Source: Corallococcus carmarthensis
Lineage (GTDB): Bacteria > Myxococcota > Myxococcia > Myxococcales > Myxococcaceae
Length of the DNA stretch: 46,774 nt
NCBI RefSeq assembly: GCF_003611695.1
Contig: NZ_RAWE01000060.1
Coordinates: 1-46,774 of the forward strand
Direction: 5' to 3'
Part shown: in pieces, positions 1 to 32,953 of the stretch
Layout of the letters: each line of letters opens with the position of its first letter
Position numbering within the stretch: position 1 is the stretch's first letter
The notes under the pieces: generated by a model
Seen by the model: the letters and a program-made list of their open reading frames with translations, nothing else
Database searches by the model: none
Told to the model about the DNA's origin: nothing
Translations under genes and position numbers: made by a program

Positions 1-68
1 CTGGAGGGGCAGGCGGGCAGCGGAGCGGGCCCCCTGTCATCCAGGGACAGGTGCCTAGCTTTGTCGGC

Positions 69-722
69 ATGAGCGAGCCCAAGGCCCAGGCGAAGAAGAC
101 GGACGAAATCGTCCCTGGCGTGCACCACTGGACCGTCTCCGACGACCGGCTCGGCGGTGGCCGCAGTGACGCCTACGCGGTGGTGGATGACGATGGCACC
201 GTCACCCTCATCGACCCGCTGCCCATCGACGAGAAGGTCCTGCGCAAGCTGGGTGACATCAACGCCATCGTGCTCACCGCGGGCAACCACCAGCGCTCCG
301 CGTGGCGTCTGCGCAAGGCGTTCGGCGTGCCCGTCTGGGCGCCGGAGGGCGCGCAGGGCCTGGAGGAGAAACCGGACTTCGAATACGTGAACGGCACCAC
401 GCTGCCGGGCGGCCTCAACACCTTCCAGACGCCGGGGCCCACGGAGGCCATGTACACGCTCTGGCTGCAGAAGAGCCCGCACGCGGTGGTCTTCATCTCC
501 GACCTGCTGTCACACGAAGGCCGGCGCACGCCCACCTTCGTCCCCGGCGAGTATCAGGACGAACCGCTGCGCACGCGCTCCAGCATCCAGCGCATCCTGG
601 ACCACCTGCCCATCCAGACCGTCTGCTTCGCGCACGGCGCGCCCATCCTCAAGGACGGCGCCAGCGCCCTGCGCAAGGCCCTGGAACAGGACGACGAGTT
701 CCCGCACGCCCCCGCGCCCTGA
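69..722 (+). CDS. Metallo-beta-lactamase-fold protein lacking the metal site
   Basis: About 217 residues with the layout of a metallo-beta-lactamase-fold hydrolase: an Asp-Pro turn after a beta strand (IDPLP), an 'IVLTAGNHQRSAW' segment where the family's HxHxDH motif should lie, 'TPGPTEAMYTL' where TPGHT is usual, a strand ending 'FISDLL' and a late 'CFAHGAPI'. The zinc-binding histidines of the first motif are absent and the TPGHT histidine is proline, so hydrolysis by the standard two-metal mechanism is unlikely. The late histidine and the GD-like aspartate remain. A GTG at 51 would add six residues; the ATG at 69 begins the family-like part. The gene converges on the next one with 4 bp between stops. 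A binding or structural role is inferred; the substrate is unknown. Confidence 0.75.
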   Translation: MSEPKAQAKKTDEIVPGVHHWTVSDDRLGGGRSDAYAVVDDDGTVTLIDPLPIDEKVLRKLGDINAIVLTAGNHQRSAWRLRKAFGVPVWAPEGAQGLEEKPDFEYVNGTTLPGGLNTFQTPGPTEAMYTLWLQKSPHAVVFISDLLSHEGRRTPTFVPGEYQDEPLRTRSSIQRILDHLPIQTVCFAHGAPILKDGASALRKALEQDDEFPHAPAP

Positions 723-726
723 GTCT

Positions 727-1521
727 TCAGCCCGGGGGCAGCTCGCGCACCAGCACGTGGCCCGCGTCCTGGCCGGGAGGCACCAGCTCCAACCGTGCCC
801 CCGCCTCCGCGCGGTCCAGCAGCGCGCCCAATGACACCAGGTCGGTGACGGGGATGCGCGTGGCGGGCGCGGGCGCGTCGCCCCGGAGCATCGCCTGGGC
901 CACGCGGGCCTCGTCGCGCAGGTCCGTCTCGTAGACGAAGGTGCGCTCGTCGTAGTCGTGTCCGCCGGGGACGCGCCCCACCAGCCGCATGGGCCCCAGC
1001 CGCGAGTGCACGCGCACGGCGGGGTTGTCCCACTGGGTGACGCCGCGCAGCCGCTTCGCGCGCACCATGCCCAGCGTGAGCAGCTTCACCCACGCGGACG
1101 CGCCCCGCCCCGGCAGGAAGCTGAACAGCGACACGCCCACGAACAGGCCCGGCGTCAGCGACGGCGCCACGTAGCAGGCCGCGCCAATGGCCGACTCCTC
1201 GTCCGCCAGCAGCAGCCGCTCACGCGCGGGCGCCTTCAACAGCCGCGCGGGACAGCGCAACAGTCCAATCGCGCCGGGCAACAGGTACAGGTCCGACAGC
1301 ACCCAACGCGGCACGCCGATGCCGCCGAACGCGAGCTGGTTGAGCGTGAGGTATTGCCGCGCGAGCTCCGCGTTGTGCTCGGCCAGCAGGTGCGTCACCG
1401 GGATGCCGTACGGCGCCAGGTCCAGCGACGGGACATGCACGCCGGAGCCCAGCGCCTGCAACGACAGCTCCGGCGCGGAGGCGAAGAACGCCTGGGCCAA
1501 CGGCGCGAGCTCACCCGCCAT
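727..1521 (-). CDS. Unknown protein coupled to an amidinotransferase-fold enzyme
   Basis: 264 residues with no family I can name. There is no signal peptide and no clear membrane helix, though stretches such as 'GLFVGVSLFSFLPGRG' are hydrophobic. The central part (about residues 100-200) has strand-like segments, then 'GVTQWDNPAVRVHSRLGPMR', which vaguely recalls the end of GNAT-like acyltransferase folds; this is a weak guess. Its start overlaps the end of the upstream amidinotransferase-fold gene by 11 bp, so the two are probably translationally coupled and act in one process. GC3 is high and even across the frame, supporting a real gene. Function unknown. Confidence 0.75.
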   Translation of the reverse strand: MAGELAPLAQAFFASAPELSLQALGSGVHVPSLDLAPYGIPVTHLLAEHNAELARQYLTLNQLAFGGIGVPRWVLSDLYLLPGAIGLLRCPARLLKAPARERLLLADEESAIGAACYVAPSLTPGLFVGVSLFSFLPGRGASAWVKLLTLGMVRAKRLRGVTQWDNPAVRVHSRLGPMRLVGRVPGGHDYDERTFVYETDLRDEARVAQAMLRGDAPAPATRIPVTDLVSLGALLDRAEAGARLELVPPGQDAGHVLVRELPPG

Positions 1522-2410
1522 CGGCTTCGATGTCCTTCGCCACGACGTCCAACCGGTACTCCGGCGGAAGCGAAACGCGCGAGGCGTCCACCGGCGCGCG
1601 CGACACGAGGCAGCGCGACGAACCGCCGCCCTTCTCCGTCAGCTCCGGCATCGGCATGGGCACCACGCGCATGCCCAGGCGCTCGAACGTCTCCACGATG
1701 TGCGCGGGCATCACCGTGGGCGCGAGCAGGTCCTTTCCCAAAGGCAGACCATTCGTCGCATAGCGGCGGATGTCCGCCTCCGTCACCCGCAACAACCGGT
1801 TCGCGCCGAAGCGCTGCTCCAGGAGCGCCACCGACTCCGGCGCCATCACGTCCGGGCACACCACCAGCCGGTCCACCGCCGGCAGGGGCAGCACCGCCAT
1901 GTTCCCGTGGAACGCGGGCTCGCGCACCTGCAGGCGCAGCACCTCGCCGGGGAAGTACTTCTGGGCCGCCTCCAGCCCGTCGAGCGTGGTGCGCCCGCCC
2001 CAGAACAGCAGCGTCACGCCGTCGAACGTCGCCACGTCGCCGTGCGCTTCCCAGATGCCCACGCCCGGATCCACGACCTCCAGGCCCAGGCGCCGGGCCA
2101 GCGGCGTCCAGTGGTCGCGCTCCGTGAAGCGATGCGCGCTCATCATCTTGGGCAGGAGGAACAGGGGCGCCTGGCCCTCGCGCGCCACCACCTGGCCGCA
2201 CTCGGCCGCGTAGGGCATGCCCGTCAGCGCGTCCGACGGCGAGGGCAACGCCACCACCGTGCCGCCTCGCGACTCGATGTGCCGGGCCAGCGTCAGCCAC
2301 TCCCGCCGCGCGCCGCGCGCATCCGCCGGAGCGGCTTCACGGCTGCGGAAGTTCGAGCGGCCTCGCAGCGCCCAGCCCCGGCCCGGGGGCGACATCAGGA
2401 AGAGGTCCAT
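1511..2410 (-). CDS. Arginine-deiminase-superfamily (amidinotransferase/DDAH-like) enzyme
   Basis: 299 residues with the order of motifs expected of the guanidine-modifying superfamily (arginine deiminase, dimethylarginine dimethylaminohydrolase, amidinotransferases). An early 'AAECGQVV' and 'PKMMSAHR' are followed by 'WEAHGDVATFDG', corresponding to the (E/G)GGD acidic site. 'AFHGNMAVLP' carries the likely catalytic His, and 'GGSSRCLVSR' near residue 270 carries the likely nucleophilic Cys. The reaction would be hydrolysis of, or amidino transfer from, a guanidino compound such as arginine or methylarginine; which one cannot be read from the sequence. It is the first gene of an 11-bp-overlapping pair with the unknown gene at 727-1521. 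The 153-bp space to the divergent lipoprotein gene must hold both promoters. Confidence 0.8.
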   Translation of the reverse strand: MDLFLMSPPGRGWALRGRSNFRSREAAPADARGARREWLTLARHIESRGGTVVALPSPSDALTGMPYAAECGQVVAREGQAPLFLLPKMMSAHRFTERDHWTPLARRLGLEVVDPGVGIWEAHGDVATFDGVTLLFWGGRTTLDGLEAAQKYFPGEVLRLQVREPAFHGNMAVLPLPAVDRLVVCPDVMAPESVALLEQRFGANRLLRVTEADIRRYATNGLPLGKDLLAPTVMPAHIVETFERLGMRVVPMPMPELTEKGGGSSRCLVSRAPVDASRVSLPPEYRLDVVAKDIEADGG

Positions 2411-2563
2411 CCCTCGCTTCTAGCCGCCGTCCGGAGGCGTCACAATGCATCCGGTCCGCCCCACCCGCCCGCCTGAAGCCCGGCCGTCCACCGCCCCACA
2501 GTGCGGAGGCCCGGGAACCAGGAACGGAGAGCCACCGCGTATCCAGGGGGCACGGGAGGATTC

Positions 2564-3589
2564 ATGCGATTGATTCCACGATGGCGCACGGGCGGACGGC
2601 TGCTGCTTCTCACGGGATGGCTCACCGCCTGCTCGGATCCAGAGCCCACGCCGCCCGACGCGGGGACACAGGACGCAGGGACGCAGGACGCGGGCACGGG
2701 CGACGCGGGCCCCAGGGAAATCACCGACGCGTGCAACAGCCGCGAGGAAGCGCTCACCCTACCCGAGTGCGCGCTCCCGCTGGACAACACGCCGCGCCAG
2801 GCCTGGCTGGGCGCCACCTTCGACTCCGACTGGTACCGCGTGGAGGCCGTCGCTCCCGTGACCGCGCCATCCATCGTGCGGCTGCGCGCGGGCTACACCG
2901 TGCCCCAGACGCCCGTGAGCCTGTGGCTGGGGGCCTACGTCCCCTTCACGCCCTACCGCCCGACCTCGCGCGTCGACCGCCACGACCCGGCGAAGGCGCC
3001 CTCCACCCTGGAGCTGCTGATTCCCTACGCGGGGGAGGCGGCCTTCCGGCTCCTGACACTGCGGGATGACACGAGCGCCTTCGACACGCAGTCGCCGTAC
3101 ACCGTCCAGGCGGAGCTGATCCCCGACCCGGATGGCCACGAACCCAACAACCTCTCCCCCTCCGCCACCGCCATCCCCCTGACCGCGACGGCGGACGGCG
3201 CGAGCGGCACCACCACGGGCGTCCTCGCCACCGAGGGGGACGTGGACTGCTTCCGGTTCGACGTGCCCGCCTCCACGAAGCGCATCTCCCTCCACCTGAC
3301 GACGGAGGCGTTCTCACCGGAGCTGCCCTTCCGCTTCTCCTATCTCCTCCTCACGCCGGAAGGGGGCATCCCCGCGCGCCAGACAGCCTTGGACCCCGCC
3401 GCCGCCACCGACCTGCGCAGCACGACCCCCGCGTCGTCCGCGGGCAGGTGGGTCATCTGGGTCCAGGCCTCCAAGGCCCTGGATCAGGACTTCGTCATGC
3501 CCGGCGACCTGCGCTCCCGGTACACGCTCCAGGTGAACCTCTCCGACACGGAAGCGCCCGGCGACTCGGGCACGCCGCCCATCCCCTGA
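2564..3589 (+). CDS. Lipoprotein with PPC-like beta domain
   Basis: 341 residues. The ATG at 2564 is preceded by a good Shine-Dalgarno (GGGAGGA at 2554-2560); an in-frame start at 2501 would spoil the signal peptide. The N-terminus has Arg/Lys residues, a hydrophobic run and the lipobox 'LTAC', so it should be a lipoprotein. A low-complexity linker of repeated Asp-Ala-Gly-Thr units follows (about residues 30-50). The C-terminal half contains 'GHEPNNLSPSATAI' and 'GDVDCFRFDVPA', which are hallmarks of PPC (bacterial pre-peptidase C-terminal) domains, and a similar jelly-roll may precede it. No protease domain is present, so the protein is probably a surface or periplasmic binding lipoprotein. 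It is monocistronic. Confidence 0.8.
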   Translation: MRLIPRWRTGGRLLLLTGWLTACSDPEPTPPDAGTQDAGTQDAGTGDAGPREITDACNSREEALTLPECALPLDNTPRQAWLGATFDSDWYRVEAVAPVTAPSIVRLRAGYTVPQTPVSLWLGAYVPFTPYRPTSRVDRHDPAKAPSTLELLIPYAGEAAFRLLTLRDDTSAFDTQSPYTVQAELIPDPDGHEPNNLSPSATAIPLTATADGASGTTTGVLATEGDVDCFRFDVPASTKRISLHLTTEAFSPELPFRFSYLLLTPEGGIPARQTALDPAAATDLRSTTPASSAGRWVIWVQASKALDQDFVMPGDLRSRYTLQVNLSDTEAPGDSGTPPIP

Positions 3590-6833: not shown

Positions 6834-6967
6834 ACGCCTAAGTCGAATTCTCCGTCATCCCACCTTGCGGCTTCCGGCCGTTCCGACTTTCTTCGGACAA
6901 GCTACGAAGTCCCCTTCGCAGCGCTCGCCGTCCCACGCCCCATCCACCCCCACAGGAGTTCGCAACC

Positions 6968-9238
6968 ATGAGCCGAAGCAGACTCACGGGAATCGCACTC
7001 GCATTCCTGGCCGTCAGTTGTCTGGCGGTGCAATCCGCAGAAGCCGCCACGTATGGCGTTACCCCCTCTGGCTCCTCCGCCCTCTTCTACGTCGACACGA
7101 CGGACTGGGCGGACATCCACTACAAGCTCAACGACGGCCTGCAGCAGAACATCCGCATGACGGTGACGGGCGGCCGCAACCAGTACACCGTCACGGGCCT
7201 GAGCAACGGCAACTACATCGACTATTTCTTCACGTACTGGGACGTGTCCTGCGCCTGTGCGCGTGACACGGCCTGGACGCGCTACACGCATACCGGCACG
7301 GGCGGCGGCACCGACGCGGGCACCGGAACCCCCGACGCGGGCACGGGCACTCCCGACGCGGGTCCTCCGCCCAACGGCGACGCGGGCCCCGTGGTGCCGC
7401 TGTTCACCAGCGCCACCGCGCTGGAGCCGGCCACGGTGGAGACCACCTCCACGGCCATCATCACCCGCGTGGGCGACCGCGTTCGCGACCGCCACATGCG
7501 CGAGGACATGTACCAGGCGTACGACCACTACCTGAAGCTGTACTTCGAGAAGCGCACCCACTGGATTGAAATCGTGGACGAGGTCGCCAAGGGCGGCACC
7601 AACATCACGGTGAACCTCTACACCATCTATCCGTACGACTCGCCGGACTTCCGCGCGTTCTTCCGTGGCCTCAACACGGTGGCCGAGTACTTCCACAACG
7701 CGGACTTCGTGAAGGTGAACGACTACAAGTACACGTCGTCGGTGAACTTCAACGCCAAGGAAGGCCGCGCCATCCGCGTGGGTGACCGGATGGAGTTGGA
7801 GATTGGCGTGTTCCTCCAGGCGCCGGTGGAAGGCCGCTTCAACTACTACTCCACGGGCATGCTCTACATCGTGGGCCAGGGCGGCATCGTGCCCTTCGAG
7901 GGCCAGGGCGGCATCCGCGACTCCTTCCCCCTGCCGCAGAAGGCCTGGGCGGGCGGCATGGGAACGCTGCACACGCCGTTCTCCAACGAGCCGGACAACC
8001 GCTTCCTGCAGATGCCCACGAACCTGGCGCCGGTGAACGCGCAGACCTTCGTGGAAGGCCGCCGCCTGCACCACACGAACTTCCGCGACGGCAGCCACTC
8101 CGAGCCGGACAACCCGGTCCTCACCGCGCAGGCGAACAAGCTGGGCAACAACTACGTCAACGTGTCCTGTGTCTCCTGCCACAAGCAGAACGGCCGCGGC
8201 CTGCCGCCCACCACCACGAACACCACGTTGGACAACTACGTGGTGAAGGTGGGCAAGGTGAACGGCAGCACCGTGACGGTGGACCCCGCGCTGGGCTTCC
8301 GCCTGCAGCCGCGCGCGGTCACCGGCACGCCGGAGGCGGACGTGCGCATCGGCAGCTGGACGACGACGGCGAGCGGCACGCTGAACGGCGGTACGGCGTA
8401 CAGCCTGCGCAAGCCCAACTACAGCTTCCTCAACGTGACGCCGACGAACTTCTCGCCGCGCATCACGCCGCAGCTGATTGGCATGGGCCTGCTGGAGGCG
8501 GTGCCGGAGTCGCAGATCGCGGGCATCGCGGACCCCAACGACGCGAACGGCGACGGCATCTCCGGGCGCATGCAGACGGTGAAGGACCCGGAGACGGGCG
8601 TCACCCGCATGGGCCGCTTCGGCTGGAAGGCGGCCTCGGCGCGCGTGAAGCACCAGGTGGCCGAGGCGCTCAACAGCGACATGGGCGTGACGTCCAACGT
8701 GTTCAAGACGCAGGACTGCGGCTCGTCGCAGCAGGGCTGCGCGGGCACGAGCGCGGAGCTGGCCGACAGCGACCTGGACAAGCTGACCCGCTACATCGCC
8801 CTCCTGGGCGTCCCGGCCCGCCGCGACTACGCGGACGCGACGGCGTTGCAGGGTGAGACGGTGTTCACCAACGCGGGCTGCGCGAAGTGCCACGCGCCCA
8901 CGCTGACCACCAGCCAGTACGCCGCGATGAACGAGTTCCGCAGCCAGACCATCCGTCCGTACACGGACCTGCTCCTGCACGACATGGGCGCGGGGCTGGC
9001 GGACAACCTGCCGGAAGGCCAGGCGTCCGGCGCCGAGTGGCGCACGGCTCCGCTCTGGGGCATTGGCCTGACGGCGGGCGTGTCCGGCGGTGAGGCGTAC
9101 CTGCACGACGGCCGCGCGCGCAACGTCACCGAGGCCATCCTCTGGCACGGTGGCGAGGGCGAGGCCTCCAAGCAGGCCTTCGTGAACCTCAGCGCCGCGG
9201 ACCGCAACGCGCTGCTGAAGTTCGTCAACTCGCTGTAA
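6968..9238 (+). CDS. Secreted CBM56-like/di-haem c-type cytochrome fusion (DUF1111 family)
   Basis: 756 residues. A signal peptide (about 1-26, ending 'QSAEA') is followed by an ~80-residue beta module ('DTTDWADIHYKLNDG', 'YWDVSCACARDTAWTRY') that resembles CBM56 beta-1,3-glucan-binding domains. An Asp-Ala-Gly-Thr-rich linker comes next (about 110-145). The remaining 600 residues form a di-haem oxidoreductase of the thiol oxidoreductase-like DUF1111 family. One haem motif is CVSCH (Cys401, Cys404, His405) and the second is CAKCH (Cys638, Cys641, His642). It should act as an electron-transfer or peroxidase-like protein in the periplasm or outside the cell. RBS 'AGGAG' lies at 6955-6959. The gene appears monocistronic with a terminator at 9262-9305. 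Joining a carbohydrate-binding module to this cytochrome is unusual. Confidence 0.88.
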   Translation: MSRSRLTGIALAFLAVSCLAVQSAEAATYGVTPSGSSALFYVDTTDWADIHYKLNDGLQQNIRMTVTGGRNQYTVTGLSNGNYIDYFFTYWDVSCACARDTAWTRYTHTGTGGGTDAGTGTPDAGTGTPDAGPPPNGDAGPVVPLFTSATALEPATVETTSTAIITRVGDRVRDRHMREDMYQAYDHYLKLYFEKRTHWIEIVDEVAKGGTNITVNLYTIYPYDSPDFRAFFRGLNTVAEYFHNADFVKVNDYKYTSSVNFNAKEGRAIRVGDRMELEIGVFLQAPVEGRFNYYSTGMLYIVGQGGIVPFEGQGGIRDSFPLPQKAWAGGMGTLHTPFSNEPDNRFLQMPTNLAPVNAQTFVEGRRLHHTNFRDGSHSEPDNPVLTAQANKLGNNYVNVSCVSCHKQNGRGLPPTTTNTTLDNYVVKVGKVNGSTVTVDPALGFRLQPRAVTGTPEADVRIGSWTTTASGTLNGGTAYSLRKPNYSFLNVTPTNFSPRITPQLIGMGLLEAVPESQIAGIADPNDANGDGISGRMQTVKDPETGVTRMGRFGWKAASARVKHQVAEALNSDMGVTSNVFKTQDCGSSQQGCAGTSAELADSDLDKLTRYIALLGVPARRDYADATALQGETVFTNAGCAKCHAPTLTTSQYAAMNEFRSQTIRPYTDLLLHDMGAGLADNLPEGQASGAEWRTAPLWGIGLTAGVSGGEAYLHDGRARNVTEAILWHGGEGEASKQAFVNLSAADRNALLKFVNSL

Positions 9239-31624: not shown

Positions 31625-32953
31625 TCAGGACCGGCGGCGCGAGGGCTTCTTCGCCGCGGACTTGCGGGCCGGGGCCTTCTTCGCGGCGGCCTTGGCCGGG
31701 GCCTTCTTCGTGGCGGCCTTCTTCGTGGTGGCCCCACGCTTCTGGACAGCACCCTTCTTCGCGGCAGCGCTCTTCTTCGCTGTGGTGGCGCCACGCTTCT
31801 GGGCGGCACCCTTCTTCGCGACGGCAGCGCCACGCTTTTGAGCGGCCCCCTTCTTCGCGGCGGCCTTGCCCGTGGCCTTCTTCGCGGCTCCACGCGCGGG
31901 CGCGGCCTTCTTCGCGGTGGCCTTGCCCACGGCCTTCTTCGCAGCGCCACGCGGAGGCGCGGCCTTCTTCGCGGCTCCACGCGGAGGCGCGGCCTTCTTC
32001 GCGGCGGTCTTCTTGCCAGCCGCCTTGCGCGCTCCCGCCCCTGTGGGGCCGGCTTCGCTCGGCGCTTCCGCTTCGGGGGCAGCAGCCTTCTTCGCGGCAC
32101 CCTTCCGCGGGCTCTTCCGGGCGGGCTCGGGCGGCGTCTCCCTGGCGACCGGGGTGGCCTCCTCGCCGCGGGCCTTCTTCGCGGCGGGGCGCTTCGGCTC
32201 GGGCTTCTCGAACAGCTCTCCCTGCTCGTCGCCTTCGGCCTCCTCCTCGCCGGTGTCCTCGGCCAGCTCCTCCTCCAGTTCCTCCTCGCCGGACACCTCC
32301 GCCTCCTCGTCCTCCTCGCCCGCTTCACGGGCCAGGGCGGCCAGGTCGCTCGAGTAGTCGCGGCCACGGCCGACGGGAGCCCCCTCGTCGTCCTCCGCCT
32401 GCGCCGCGGCGCCGGACAGCGCGCCCTGGAGCACGGCGTTCATGGCGCGCGCGAAGGTCCGCTCCCCGAAGCTCTCCACCTCTTCCACCGGCGGAACCAG
32501 CACCTCGAGCATGTCCTTGAGCGCGCGGTACAGCCGCATCTCCTTCTTCTCGCCGTCCCAGGTGCCGAAGACCCAGTCGTCCCCGTCCAGCGCGTCCACC
32601 CAGCCGGGCAGCGGCCCGCCGCCGTCCCCCTGCTCCTCCATCGCGGACTTGCGCGCGACGAACAGGTGCCGGTGCGCCCCCTTCAACCCGAAGCGCCACA
32701 CGCCCGCGGCGGGCAGGCCCACCACCATCAACCGGCTCTTCTCCAGGACGCTGGGCGCACCCTCACCGCCACGCAGCGGGTACAGCCGAACCTCGCCCTG
32801 GAACTCACCGCCGTTGAGCGCCTGGTACAGGTCCGCCAGATCCTCGGGGAACGGGACGCCGCACTCCGTCTCCGCGCGGCGGACCTCCTCCGACTGCACA
32901 CCCTCCGAGGTCGCCTTCGCCGACTTGCGCAGTGCCTCCAACCACTCGTGCAT
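31625..32953 (-). CDS. SMI1/KNR4 domain fused to acidic and histone-H1-like tails
   Basis: 442 residues in three parts. Residues 1-175 form an SMI1/KNR4 (SUKH) domain: 'EVRRAETECGVPFPEDLADL', 'ALNGGEFQGEVRLYPL', 'DDWVFGTWDGEKKEMRLY'. Residues 186-249 are an acidic tract rich in Glu/Asp. Residues 250-442 are almost only Lys, Ala, Pro, Arg and Gly, with AKK and PPRGAAKK repeats, like eukaryotic H1 tails or bacterial Hc1/Hc2/AlgP-type proteins. RBS GGAGGGG sits just before the ATG. SUKH domains are protein-binding immunity modules in toxin systems; the tail should bind nucleic acids. This suggests a chromatin-associated adaptor (inference). Confidence 0.85.
   Translation of the reverse strand: MHEWLEALRKSAKATSEGVQSEEVRRAETECGVPFPEDLADLYQALNGGEFQGEVRLYPLRGGEGAPSVLEKSRLMVVGLPAAGVWRFGLKGAHRHLFVARKSAMEEQGDGGGPLPGWVDALDGDDWVFGTWDGEKKEMRLYRALKDMLEVLVPPVEEVESFGERTFARAMNAVLQGALSGAAAQAEDDEGAPVGRGRDYSSDLAALAREAGEEDEEAEVSGEEELEEELAEDTGEEEAEGDEQGELFEKPEPKRPAAKKARGEEATPVARETPPEPARKSPRKGAAKKAAAPEAEAPSEAGPTGAGARKAAGKKTAAKKAAPPRGAAKKAAPPRGAAKKAVGKATAKKAAPARGAAKKATGKAAAKKGAAQKRGAAVAKKGAAQKRGATTAKKSAAAKKGAVQKRGATTKKAATKKAPAKAAAKKAPARKSAAKKPSRRRS
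31628..32029 (-). repeat. Degenerate repeats coding the Lys/Ala-rich tail
   Basis: About 400 bp made of imperfect 15-39-bp units that recur around GGCCTTCTTCGCGGC on the + strand, coding AAKK-type motifs. Copies of the 24-bp PPRGAAKK unit are adjacent near 31960-32000. The tract is prone to length change. Confidence 0.75.

What the first reader, a model, noticed from the sequence alone, without database searches (positions are those of the whole stretch)
6968..9238. Carbohydrate-binding module fused to a di-haem oxidoreductase
A CBM56-like beta module and a repeat linker precede a DUF1111 di-haem protein. This could anchor a redox enzyme to glucan or to the cell's own matrix, suggesting oxidative attack on polysaccharide or surface electron transfer.
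Basis: partly seen in the sequence, partly recalled or inferred. Interest (0 to 1): 0.6.

Follow-up and report, generated by a model that had tools for sequence, protein, structure and literature searches.

The report
Glucan-binding di-haem enzyme of myxobacteria
A predatory soil bacterium encodes a secreted two-haem redox protein carrying a module that should bind beta-1,3-glucan, a main sugar polymer of fungal walls, and some relatives are fused to or encoded beside glucan-cutting enzymes, so it is a good candidate for a little-studied redox helper in glucan breakdown.

Summary
Of 96 family genomes searched, 53 hold the orthologue; 16 of 16 same-genus (Corallococcus) genomes have exactly one CBM56, in this protein. 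C. silvisoli secretes a CBM56 protein induced by rice straw and chitin, probably this one (PMC10875029).

Relatives with the same extended DHOR carry other sugar-binding modules: CBM56 inserted after haem 1, inserted CBM6, F5/8C, ricin-B. One is fused to GH16 and CBM56 (Pseudoalteromonas); one lies between GH1 and CBM56-GH16 genes. Best reading: a secreted auxiliary redox enzyme parked on beta-1,3-glucan. The reaction is unknown, and the window's gene itself has no glucan-enzyme neighbours. CBM-cytochrome proteins (Cbp2D) and a GH26-DHOR fusion (Xyn65) are in print, so this is a new variant of a known kind.

The parts
6968..9238 (+). CBM56-DHOR gene, 756 aa
   Evidence: orthologue in 53 of 96 genomes of the bacterial family searched
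6954..6958 (+). AGGAG, likely ribosome-binding site
   Evidence: sequence
6968..7045 (+). signal peptide, residues 1-26, likely signal peptidase I cleavage AEA|A
   Evidence: read by eye; 10 of 30 aligned orthologues have no lipobox-like Cys there, so a lipoprotein is unlikely; no signal predictor was available
7055..7291 (+). CBM56 module, residues 30-108
7112..7120 (+). D49-I-H51, aligned with ligand residues D963 and H965 of BhCBM56 (residue roles recalled)
   Evidence: WAD[ILV]H-type motif in 30 of 30 orthologues
7274..7276 (+). W103, aligned with W1015 of BhCBM56 (role recalled)
   Evidence: kept in 29 of 30 orthologues
7292..7390 (+). DAG-repeat linker, residues 109-141, with the 21-base tandem repeat at 7311-7362
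7391..7939 (+). extended-DHOR N-domain, residues ~142-324, no Pfam name; no usable structure model
7484..7504 (+). RDRHMRE (173-179) in the N-domain, with H176
   Evidence: R171, R175, H176, E179 invariant in 11 of 11 extended DHORs compared, region absent in 3 of 3 short ones; the pattern RxRHxxE itself is in 8 of 11
7940..9235 (+). DHOR (DUF1111) domain, residues 325-756
8168..8182 (+). haem 1 site CVSCH 401-405
8879..8893 (+). haem 2 site CAKCH 638-642

Best explanation
The protein is a secreted, non-lipidated modular redox enzyme for beta-1,3-glucan. Shown by sequence: export signal (by eye), CBM56, flexible linker, unnamed N-domain, di-haem DHOR. Inferred: after export CBM56 holds it on beta-1,3-glucan (fungal prey walls, plant callose, similar polymers), while the di-haem domain does redox chemistry at the polymer surface beside hydrolases. 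The likeliest chemistry is peroxidase or oxidase type: one haem exchanges electrons and the other handles H2O2 or O2. The substrate is either the glucan and its oligosaccharides, or electron donors and peroxides in the wall being digested. Across relatives the constant part is the extended DHOR (N-domain plus DHOR); the sugar-binding part was gained or swapped several times, as in auxiliary-activity enzymes.
For: CBM56 and DHOR well above Pfam cut-offs; fold match to solved CBM56s; recalled binding residues kept in orthologues. Orthologue in 53 of 96 family genomes; exactly one CBM56 in 16 of 16 same-genus genomes, in this protein. Both haem motifs and 68 positions in all are invariant through 11 extended plus 3 short DHORs compared, so the redox part is not decayed. 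Other extended DHORs carry: CBM56 inserted after haem 1 (11 genomes; Pfam on two); F5/8C, He_PIG and fn3 (Pfam on one of four); inserted CBM6 in another family of the phylum; ricin-B in Eleftheria. A single Pseudoalteromonas protein holds GH16, CBM6, CBM56 and DHOR. In G042 the row LacI, GH1, CBM56-DHOR, CBM56-GH16, ABC sugar transporter lies on one strand with gaps of about 20-200 bases. A further extended-DHOR class directly follows a GH2_C/GH72-like gene in 5 of 5 genomes examined, and a Tos1-like gene lies upstream in the 4 of these where enough sequence was fetched. The DHOR of the same genome beside an imelysin (L002) lacks the CBM and the N-domain. Corallococcus silvisoli secretes a CBM56 protein induced by rice straw and by chitin (PMC10875029, section 3.1 read).
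Against: No activity data for any DHOR in the passages read. The window's gene stands alone: none of nine neighbouring proteins scanned is a CAZyme by Pfam, and the neighbours are not found in two Archangium loci. Six class A loci in five other genera showed no neighbour shared between genera, judged by eye; three of those neighbours were Pfam-scanned, one of which has CBM_4_9 domains. Of 7 inserted-CBM56 loci examined, 1 lies in a recognised glucan gene row. Inserted CBM56s lack the aligned Trp in 11 of 11. GH16s of the own genome carry no CBM56. The C. silvisoli link rests on CBM56 being single in 16 relatives, not on an accession. Rice straw and chitin are not beta-1,3-glucan. AlphaFold gave no usable model of the N-domain or DHOR.
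Confidence: 0.6

Rival explanations
1. Electron donor for a lytic polysaccharide monooxygenase, as proposed for Cbp2D/Cbp2E: the cytochrome is parked on polysaccharide and reduces LPMO copper.
For: CBM plus c-type haem architecture resembles Cbp2D (passages). AA10 is found in 44 of 53 genomes with the orthologue against 8 of 43 without (12 of 43 with four weak hits counted), not corrected for kinship. The own genome has one AA10.
Against: 9 of 53 orthologue genomes have no AA10 match, among them G042 with the glucan gene row. No YceI match in Pfam. AA10 is not known to me to attack beta-1,3-glucan (recalled).
Confidence: 0.15
2. Protective peroxidase: it removes H2O2 at the surface of prey walls or plant debris, shielding hydrolases and the predator, without touching the glucan.
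For: Pfam names DHOR a putative peroxidase; a weak profile match of DHOR to cytochrome c551 peroxidase 3o5c, E 0.0088.
Against: Does not by itself explain fusion to GH16 in one polypeptide or repeated gain of different CBMs.
Confidence: 0.2
3. Iron-related oxidoreductase, as for DHORs beside imelysins, with CBM56 only anchoring it.
For: DUF1111 proteins are described with imelysins in iron uptake (PMC3143127, passages); the own genome has such a pair (L002).
Against: That copy belongs to a different, short class without the N-domain; no imelysin among nine neighbours of the window gene.
Confidence: 0.08
4. Anchoring to the bacterium's own matrix or spore coat for surface electron transfer.
For: Myxobacteria make thick matrices (recalled).
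Against: CBM56 is described as binding beta-1,3-glucan (PMC7915573, passages), and the links found in relatives are to glycoside hydrolases; only two CXXCH motifs are present. Not tested directly.
Confidence: 0.05

Closest known systems
Xyn65 of Gilvimarinus xylanilyticus (GH26-CBM31-CBM6-Big-DHOR; PMC9638140, passages)
   Same: CBM and DHOR in one secreted protein acting on a beta-1,3-linked polysaccharide; its authors suggest oxidoreductase activity on the polymer as one possibility
   Different: Has a GH26 hydrolase; CBM31/CBM6 not CBM56; whether it has the N-domain is unknown to me
Pseudoalteromonas sp. Bsw20308 protein WP_007375536.1
   Same: CBM56, N-domain and DHOR, 43% identical over query 34-756
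   Different: GH16 and CBM6 in front; marine gammaproteobacterium; annotated only as di-heme oxidoredictase family protein
Cbp2D/Cbp2E of Cellvibrio japonicus and TERTU_3803 of Teredinibacter turnerae (PMC12542752, PMC10916295, passages)
   Same: Redox domains, among them c-type cytochrome, fused to CBMs
   Different: Other CBMs (CBM2, CBM10) and other redox domains (X158, X183, X132); linked to cellulose
Imelysin-linked DHOR (DUF1111)
   Same: Same di-haem domain family
   Different: The own-genome example is short, with no CBM and no N-domain; proposed for iron uptake

Membership tests
CBM56 (PF22184) | profile match above the gathering cut-off | tested here: met
   83.9 bits against 27
CBM56 (PF22184) | fold of solved CBM56s | tested here: met
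   predicted model region 24-108 to 5t7a Z 12.8, rmsd 1.4, 83 aligned
CBM56 (PF22184) | Asp, His, Trp ligand residues (BhCBM56 D963, H965, W1015; recalled, paper not held) | tested here: met
   D49, H51, W103 by alignment
CBM56 (PF22184) | binds beta-1,3-glucan | not testable with these tools
   needs a pull-down with curdlan or laminarin
DHOR / DUF1111 (PF06537) | profile match above the gathering cut-off | tested here: met
   230 bits against 22
DHOR / DUF1111 (PF06537) | two CXXCH haem sites | tested here: met
   C401-H405 and C638-H642, invariant in the sets compared
DHOR / DUF1111 (PF06537) | peroxidase or oxidoreductase activity | not testable with these tools
   no assay; no solved DHOR found by sequence
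Imelysin-linked iron-type DHOR | gene beside imelysin (PF09375) | tested here: not met
   nine window proteins around the gene scanned, none imelysin; met by another DHOR of the genome, L002
Cbp2D-type LPMO partner | YceI-like X158 or X183 domain | tested here: inconclusive
   no YceI match in Pfam; X domains were not searched as such
Cbp2D-type LPMO partner | an LPMO in the same genome | tested here: inconclusive
   AA10 present in own genome, but no match in 9 of 53 orthologue genomes

The most novel reading that the evidence does not exclude
The extended DHOR (N-domain plus di-haem domain) is a new auxiliary-activity family that oxidises beta-1,3-linked glucan or its oligosaccharides directly. 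It would be a haem-based counterpart of LPMOs for beta-1,3-glycans, with H176, H369 and H377 (invariant in 11 of 11 extended forms compared, absent in 3 of 3 short ones) shaping its haem or substrate site. Myxobacterial versions would serve attack on fungal walls.
Probability: 0.2. Interest if true: 0.85.

Novelty: new variant of a known kind. Interest (0 to 1): 0.58.

Why it matters
DUF1111/DHOR proteins occur in several phyla, yet their reaction is unproven in what I read. A branch that repeatedly picks up sugar-binding modules, and that in some genomes sits with glucanase genes or in the same polypeptide, gives a concrete substrate class to test. If confirmed it would add a di-haem enzyme to the redox toolkit for polysaccharide breakdown and to how myxobacteria digest fungi.

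Tried and rejected
AlphaFold of the full protein with 11 close relatives (mean pLDDT 32, only CBM56 usable) and of the N-domain alone (38) gave no fold. The fold comparison tested only about residues 17-112. No PDB relative of DHOR or the N-domain by sequence beyond short cytochrome c segments and one weak cytochrome c551 peroxidase match. NCBIfam gave no family above its cut-off.

Operon partner for the window gene: rejected; its neighbours lie on the other strand or far off, and are not shared with Archangium.

Obligatory LPMO partner: rejected as obligatory.

One common origin of N-terminal and inserted CBM56: the CBM56 tree puts the inserted form with GH16-linked CBM56 (support 94/85), but a joint clade of N-terminal and inserted forms is not rejected (p-AU 0.113, 66 columns). 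Two captures are favoured, not shown.

Distribution outside the phylum: only the plasmid collection was searched; the single genome-contig scan gave close relatives only.

Published earlier? Full-text searches showed no CBM56-DHOR fusion in the titles and abstract starts listed. Listings were cut (30 of 36; 20 of 99; 10 of 32; 10 of 373). Most subscription papers are not held.

Full report
WHAT IS THERE. ORF 6968-9238 on the + strand encodes 756 aa behind a good ribosome-binding site. The parts are: a signal peptide ending AEA|A (by eye); CBM56 at 30-101 (Pfam E 9e-24); a DAG-repeat linker; a conserved region ~142-324 to which Pfam, NCBIfam and the PDB sequence search assign no family; and a DHOR domain (Pfam E 5.3e-68) with CXXCH at 401 and 638. 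Only the CBM56 part of the AlphaFold model is usable, and its six best structural matches are CBM56-bearing chains, led by 5t7a (Z 12.8). The three residues that I recall as the ligand-binding set of BhCBM56 align with D49, H51 and W103. They are kept in 30 of 30 (D, H) and 29 of 30 (W) aligned orthologues.

WHO HAS IT. The window lies in a genome of 10.8 Mb in 530 contigs. Of nine named loci at 87-93% identity, eight are titled Corallococcus and one is an unnamed Myxococcaceae MAG; two Archangium loci are at 71-72%. Of 96 genomes of the family, 53 hold the orthologue: 52 with CBM56, one cut by a contig end. Each of 16 same-genus genomes has exactly one CBM56, inside this protein. The gene stands alone. 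Nearby proteins are a Na/H exchanger, an AHSA1-like protein, a 2OG-oxygenase-like protein, two TonB_C proteins and a dynamin-like GTPase; three of nine scanned had no Pfam match. Several of these recur beside the gene in the Corallococcus loci where the contig reaches far enough; none was found in the two Archangium loci.

A FAMILY THAT COLLECTS SUGAR-BINDING MODULES. The N-domain plus DHOR ('extended DHOR') recurs with different attachments. Class A: N-terminal CBM56, this protein. Class B (11 genomes): the CBM56 is inside the protein, in the loop just after the first haem motif, between positions matching residues 415-421 and 423-424 (Pfam on two members). All 11 match a relaxed lipobox pattern and none keeps the aligned Trp. 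Class C (4 genomes): He_PIG, F5/8C and fn3 domains in front; Pfam was run on one member. One protein from another family of the phylum has CBM6 inserted at a different point. In Eleftheria one has a ricin-B lectin and another has no CBM by Pfam. Class D has no CBM by Pfam (three members scanned), nor has the f17 protein L133. In a tree each class is one side of a branch: B, C and E starred, A 92/87, D 92/54. The CBM56 tree groups the inserted modules with those of GH16 proteins (94/85), which suggests a separate capture, though one origin is not rejected (p-AU 0.113). Of the four GH16-linked rows two were Pfam-scanned; all four have EIDIME and are 70-81% identical over their length.

LINKS TO GLUCAN ENZYMES. 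(1) Pseudoalteromonas sp. Bsw20308 encodes one 1459-aa protein with GH16, CBM6, CBM56 and DHOR. (2) In G042 the class B gene lies in a row LacI regulator, GH1, CBM56-DHOR, CBM56-GH16, ABC sugar transporter, all on one strand with gaps of about 20-200 bases (starts chosen by a simple rule). (3) Another extended-DHOR class (F) directly follows a GH2_C/GH72-like gene in 5 of 5 genomes examined. A Tos1-like gene lies further upstream in four of them; in the fifth, G041, too little sequence was fetched to tell. Pfam was run on the glycosidase-like and the Tos1-like protein of one genome and the rest were found by tblastn; GH2_C and Tos1_N are above their cut-offs, GH72 and Tos1_C below. (4) In print, Xyn65 joins GH26, CBM31, CBM6, Big and DHOR on beta-1,3-xylan (PMC9638140, passages).

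AGAINST. In the other 6 of 7 class B contexts fetched I recognised no such row by eye; only two of those neighbours were Pfam-scanned, and neither is a named glycoside hydrolase. Six class A loci in five other genera share no neighbour between genera, judged by eye; of three of their neighbours scanned, one has CBM_4_9 domains. One of five genera-level examples in a glucan row is not proof for the window's gene.

EXPRESSION. In Corallococcus silvisoli the secreted proteome contains a CBM56 family protein induced by both rice straw and alpha-chitin (PMC10875029, section 3.1 read in full; other passages). As each of 16 same-genus genomes has a single CBM56, in this protein, it is very probably the orthologue. 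I saw no accession, and did not identify the C. silvisoli genome among the unnamed ones.

MECHANISM. Shown: modules, haem motifs, conservation, associations. Inferred: export, binding to beta-1,3-glucan, redox action there. Candidate special residues are H176, H369 and H377, invariant in 11 of 11 extended DHORs compared and absent in 3 of 3 short ones. AA10 LPMO genes are common but have no match in 9 of 53 genomes with the orthologue (the association is confounded by kinship). The genome's imelysin-linked DHOR is of a separate short class.

COMPARISON. It meets the tested features of CBM56 and of DHOR. It works like CBM-tethered cytochromes such as Cbp2D (passages), but with other modules. 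The combination CBM56 plus DHOR was not seen in the listings of my paper searches (named in Tried and rejected).

VERDICT. Its glucan-anchoring idea is supported; the chemistry is open.

Noticed in passing
L004 (G000:C507), DHOR at 1501-3003 and neighbour 3-1652, minus strand: A short DHOR in the same genome lies beside a protein with a MAC/Perforin domain (Pfam E 2e-25).
   Followed up: no
L148:1708-3102 and homologues in L144, L145, L146: Bacterial proteins matching the fungal cell-wall family YJL171C/Tos1 (N-terminal model E 5e-9; homologues by tblastn) lie upstream of a glycosidase-like gene and an extended DHOR.
   Followed up: partly
window:9314-11085, minus strand: Two neighbouring frames encode proteins with TonB_C domains; their presence and likeness vary between Corallococcus loci.
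   Followed up: no
window:31628-32953, minus strand: A frame with several overlapping tandem-repeat arrays near its C-terminal end (31646-32005); the units would read as Ala and Lys codons if in frame, which I did not check.
   Followed up: no
L035, L039, L116: Other proteins of the family end in fn3 plus CBM56 with no catalytic family named by Pfam in the parts scanned; their front part may be an unrecognised glucan enzyme.
   Followed up: no
L134:1602-4202: CBM6 inserted inside a DHOR in another Myxococcota family, at a different loop from the CBM56 insertion.
   Followed up: partly
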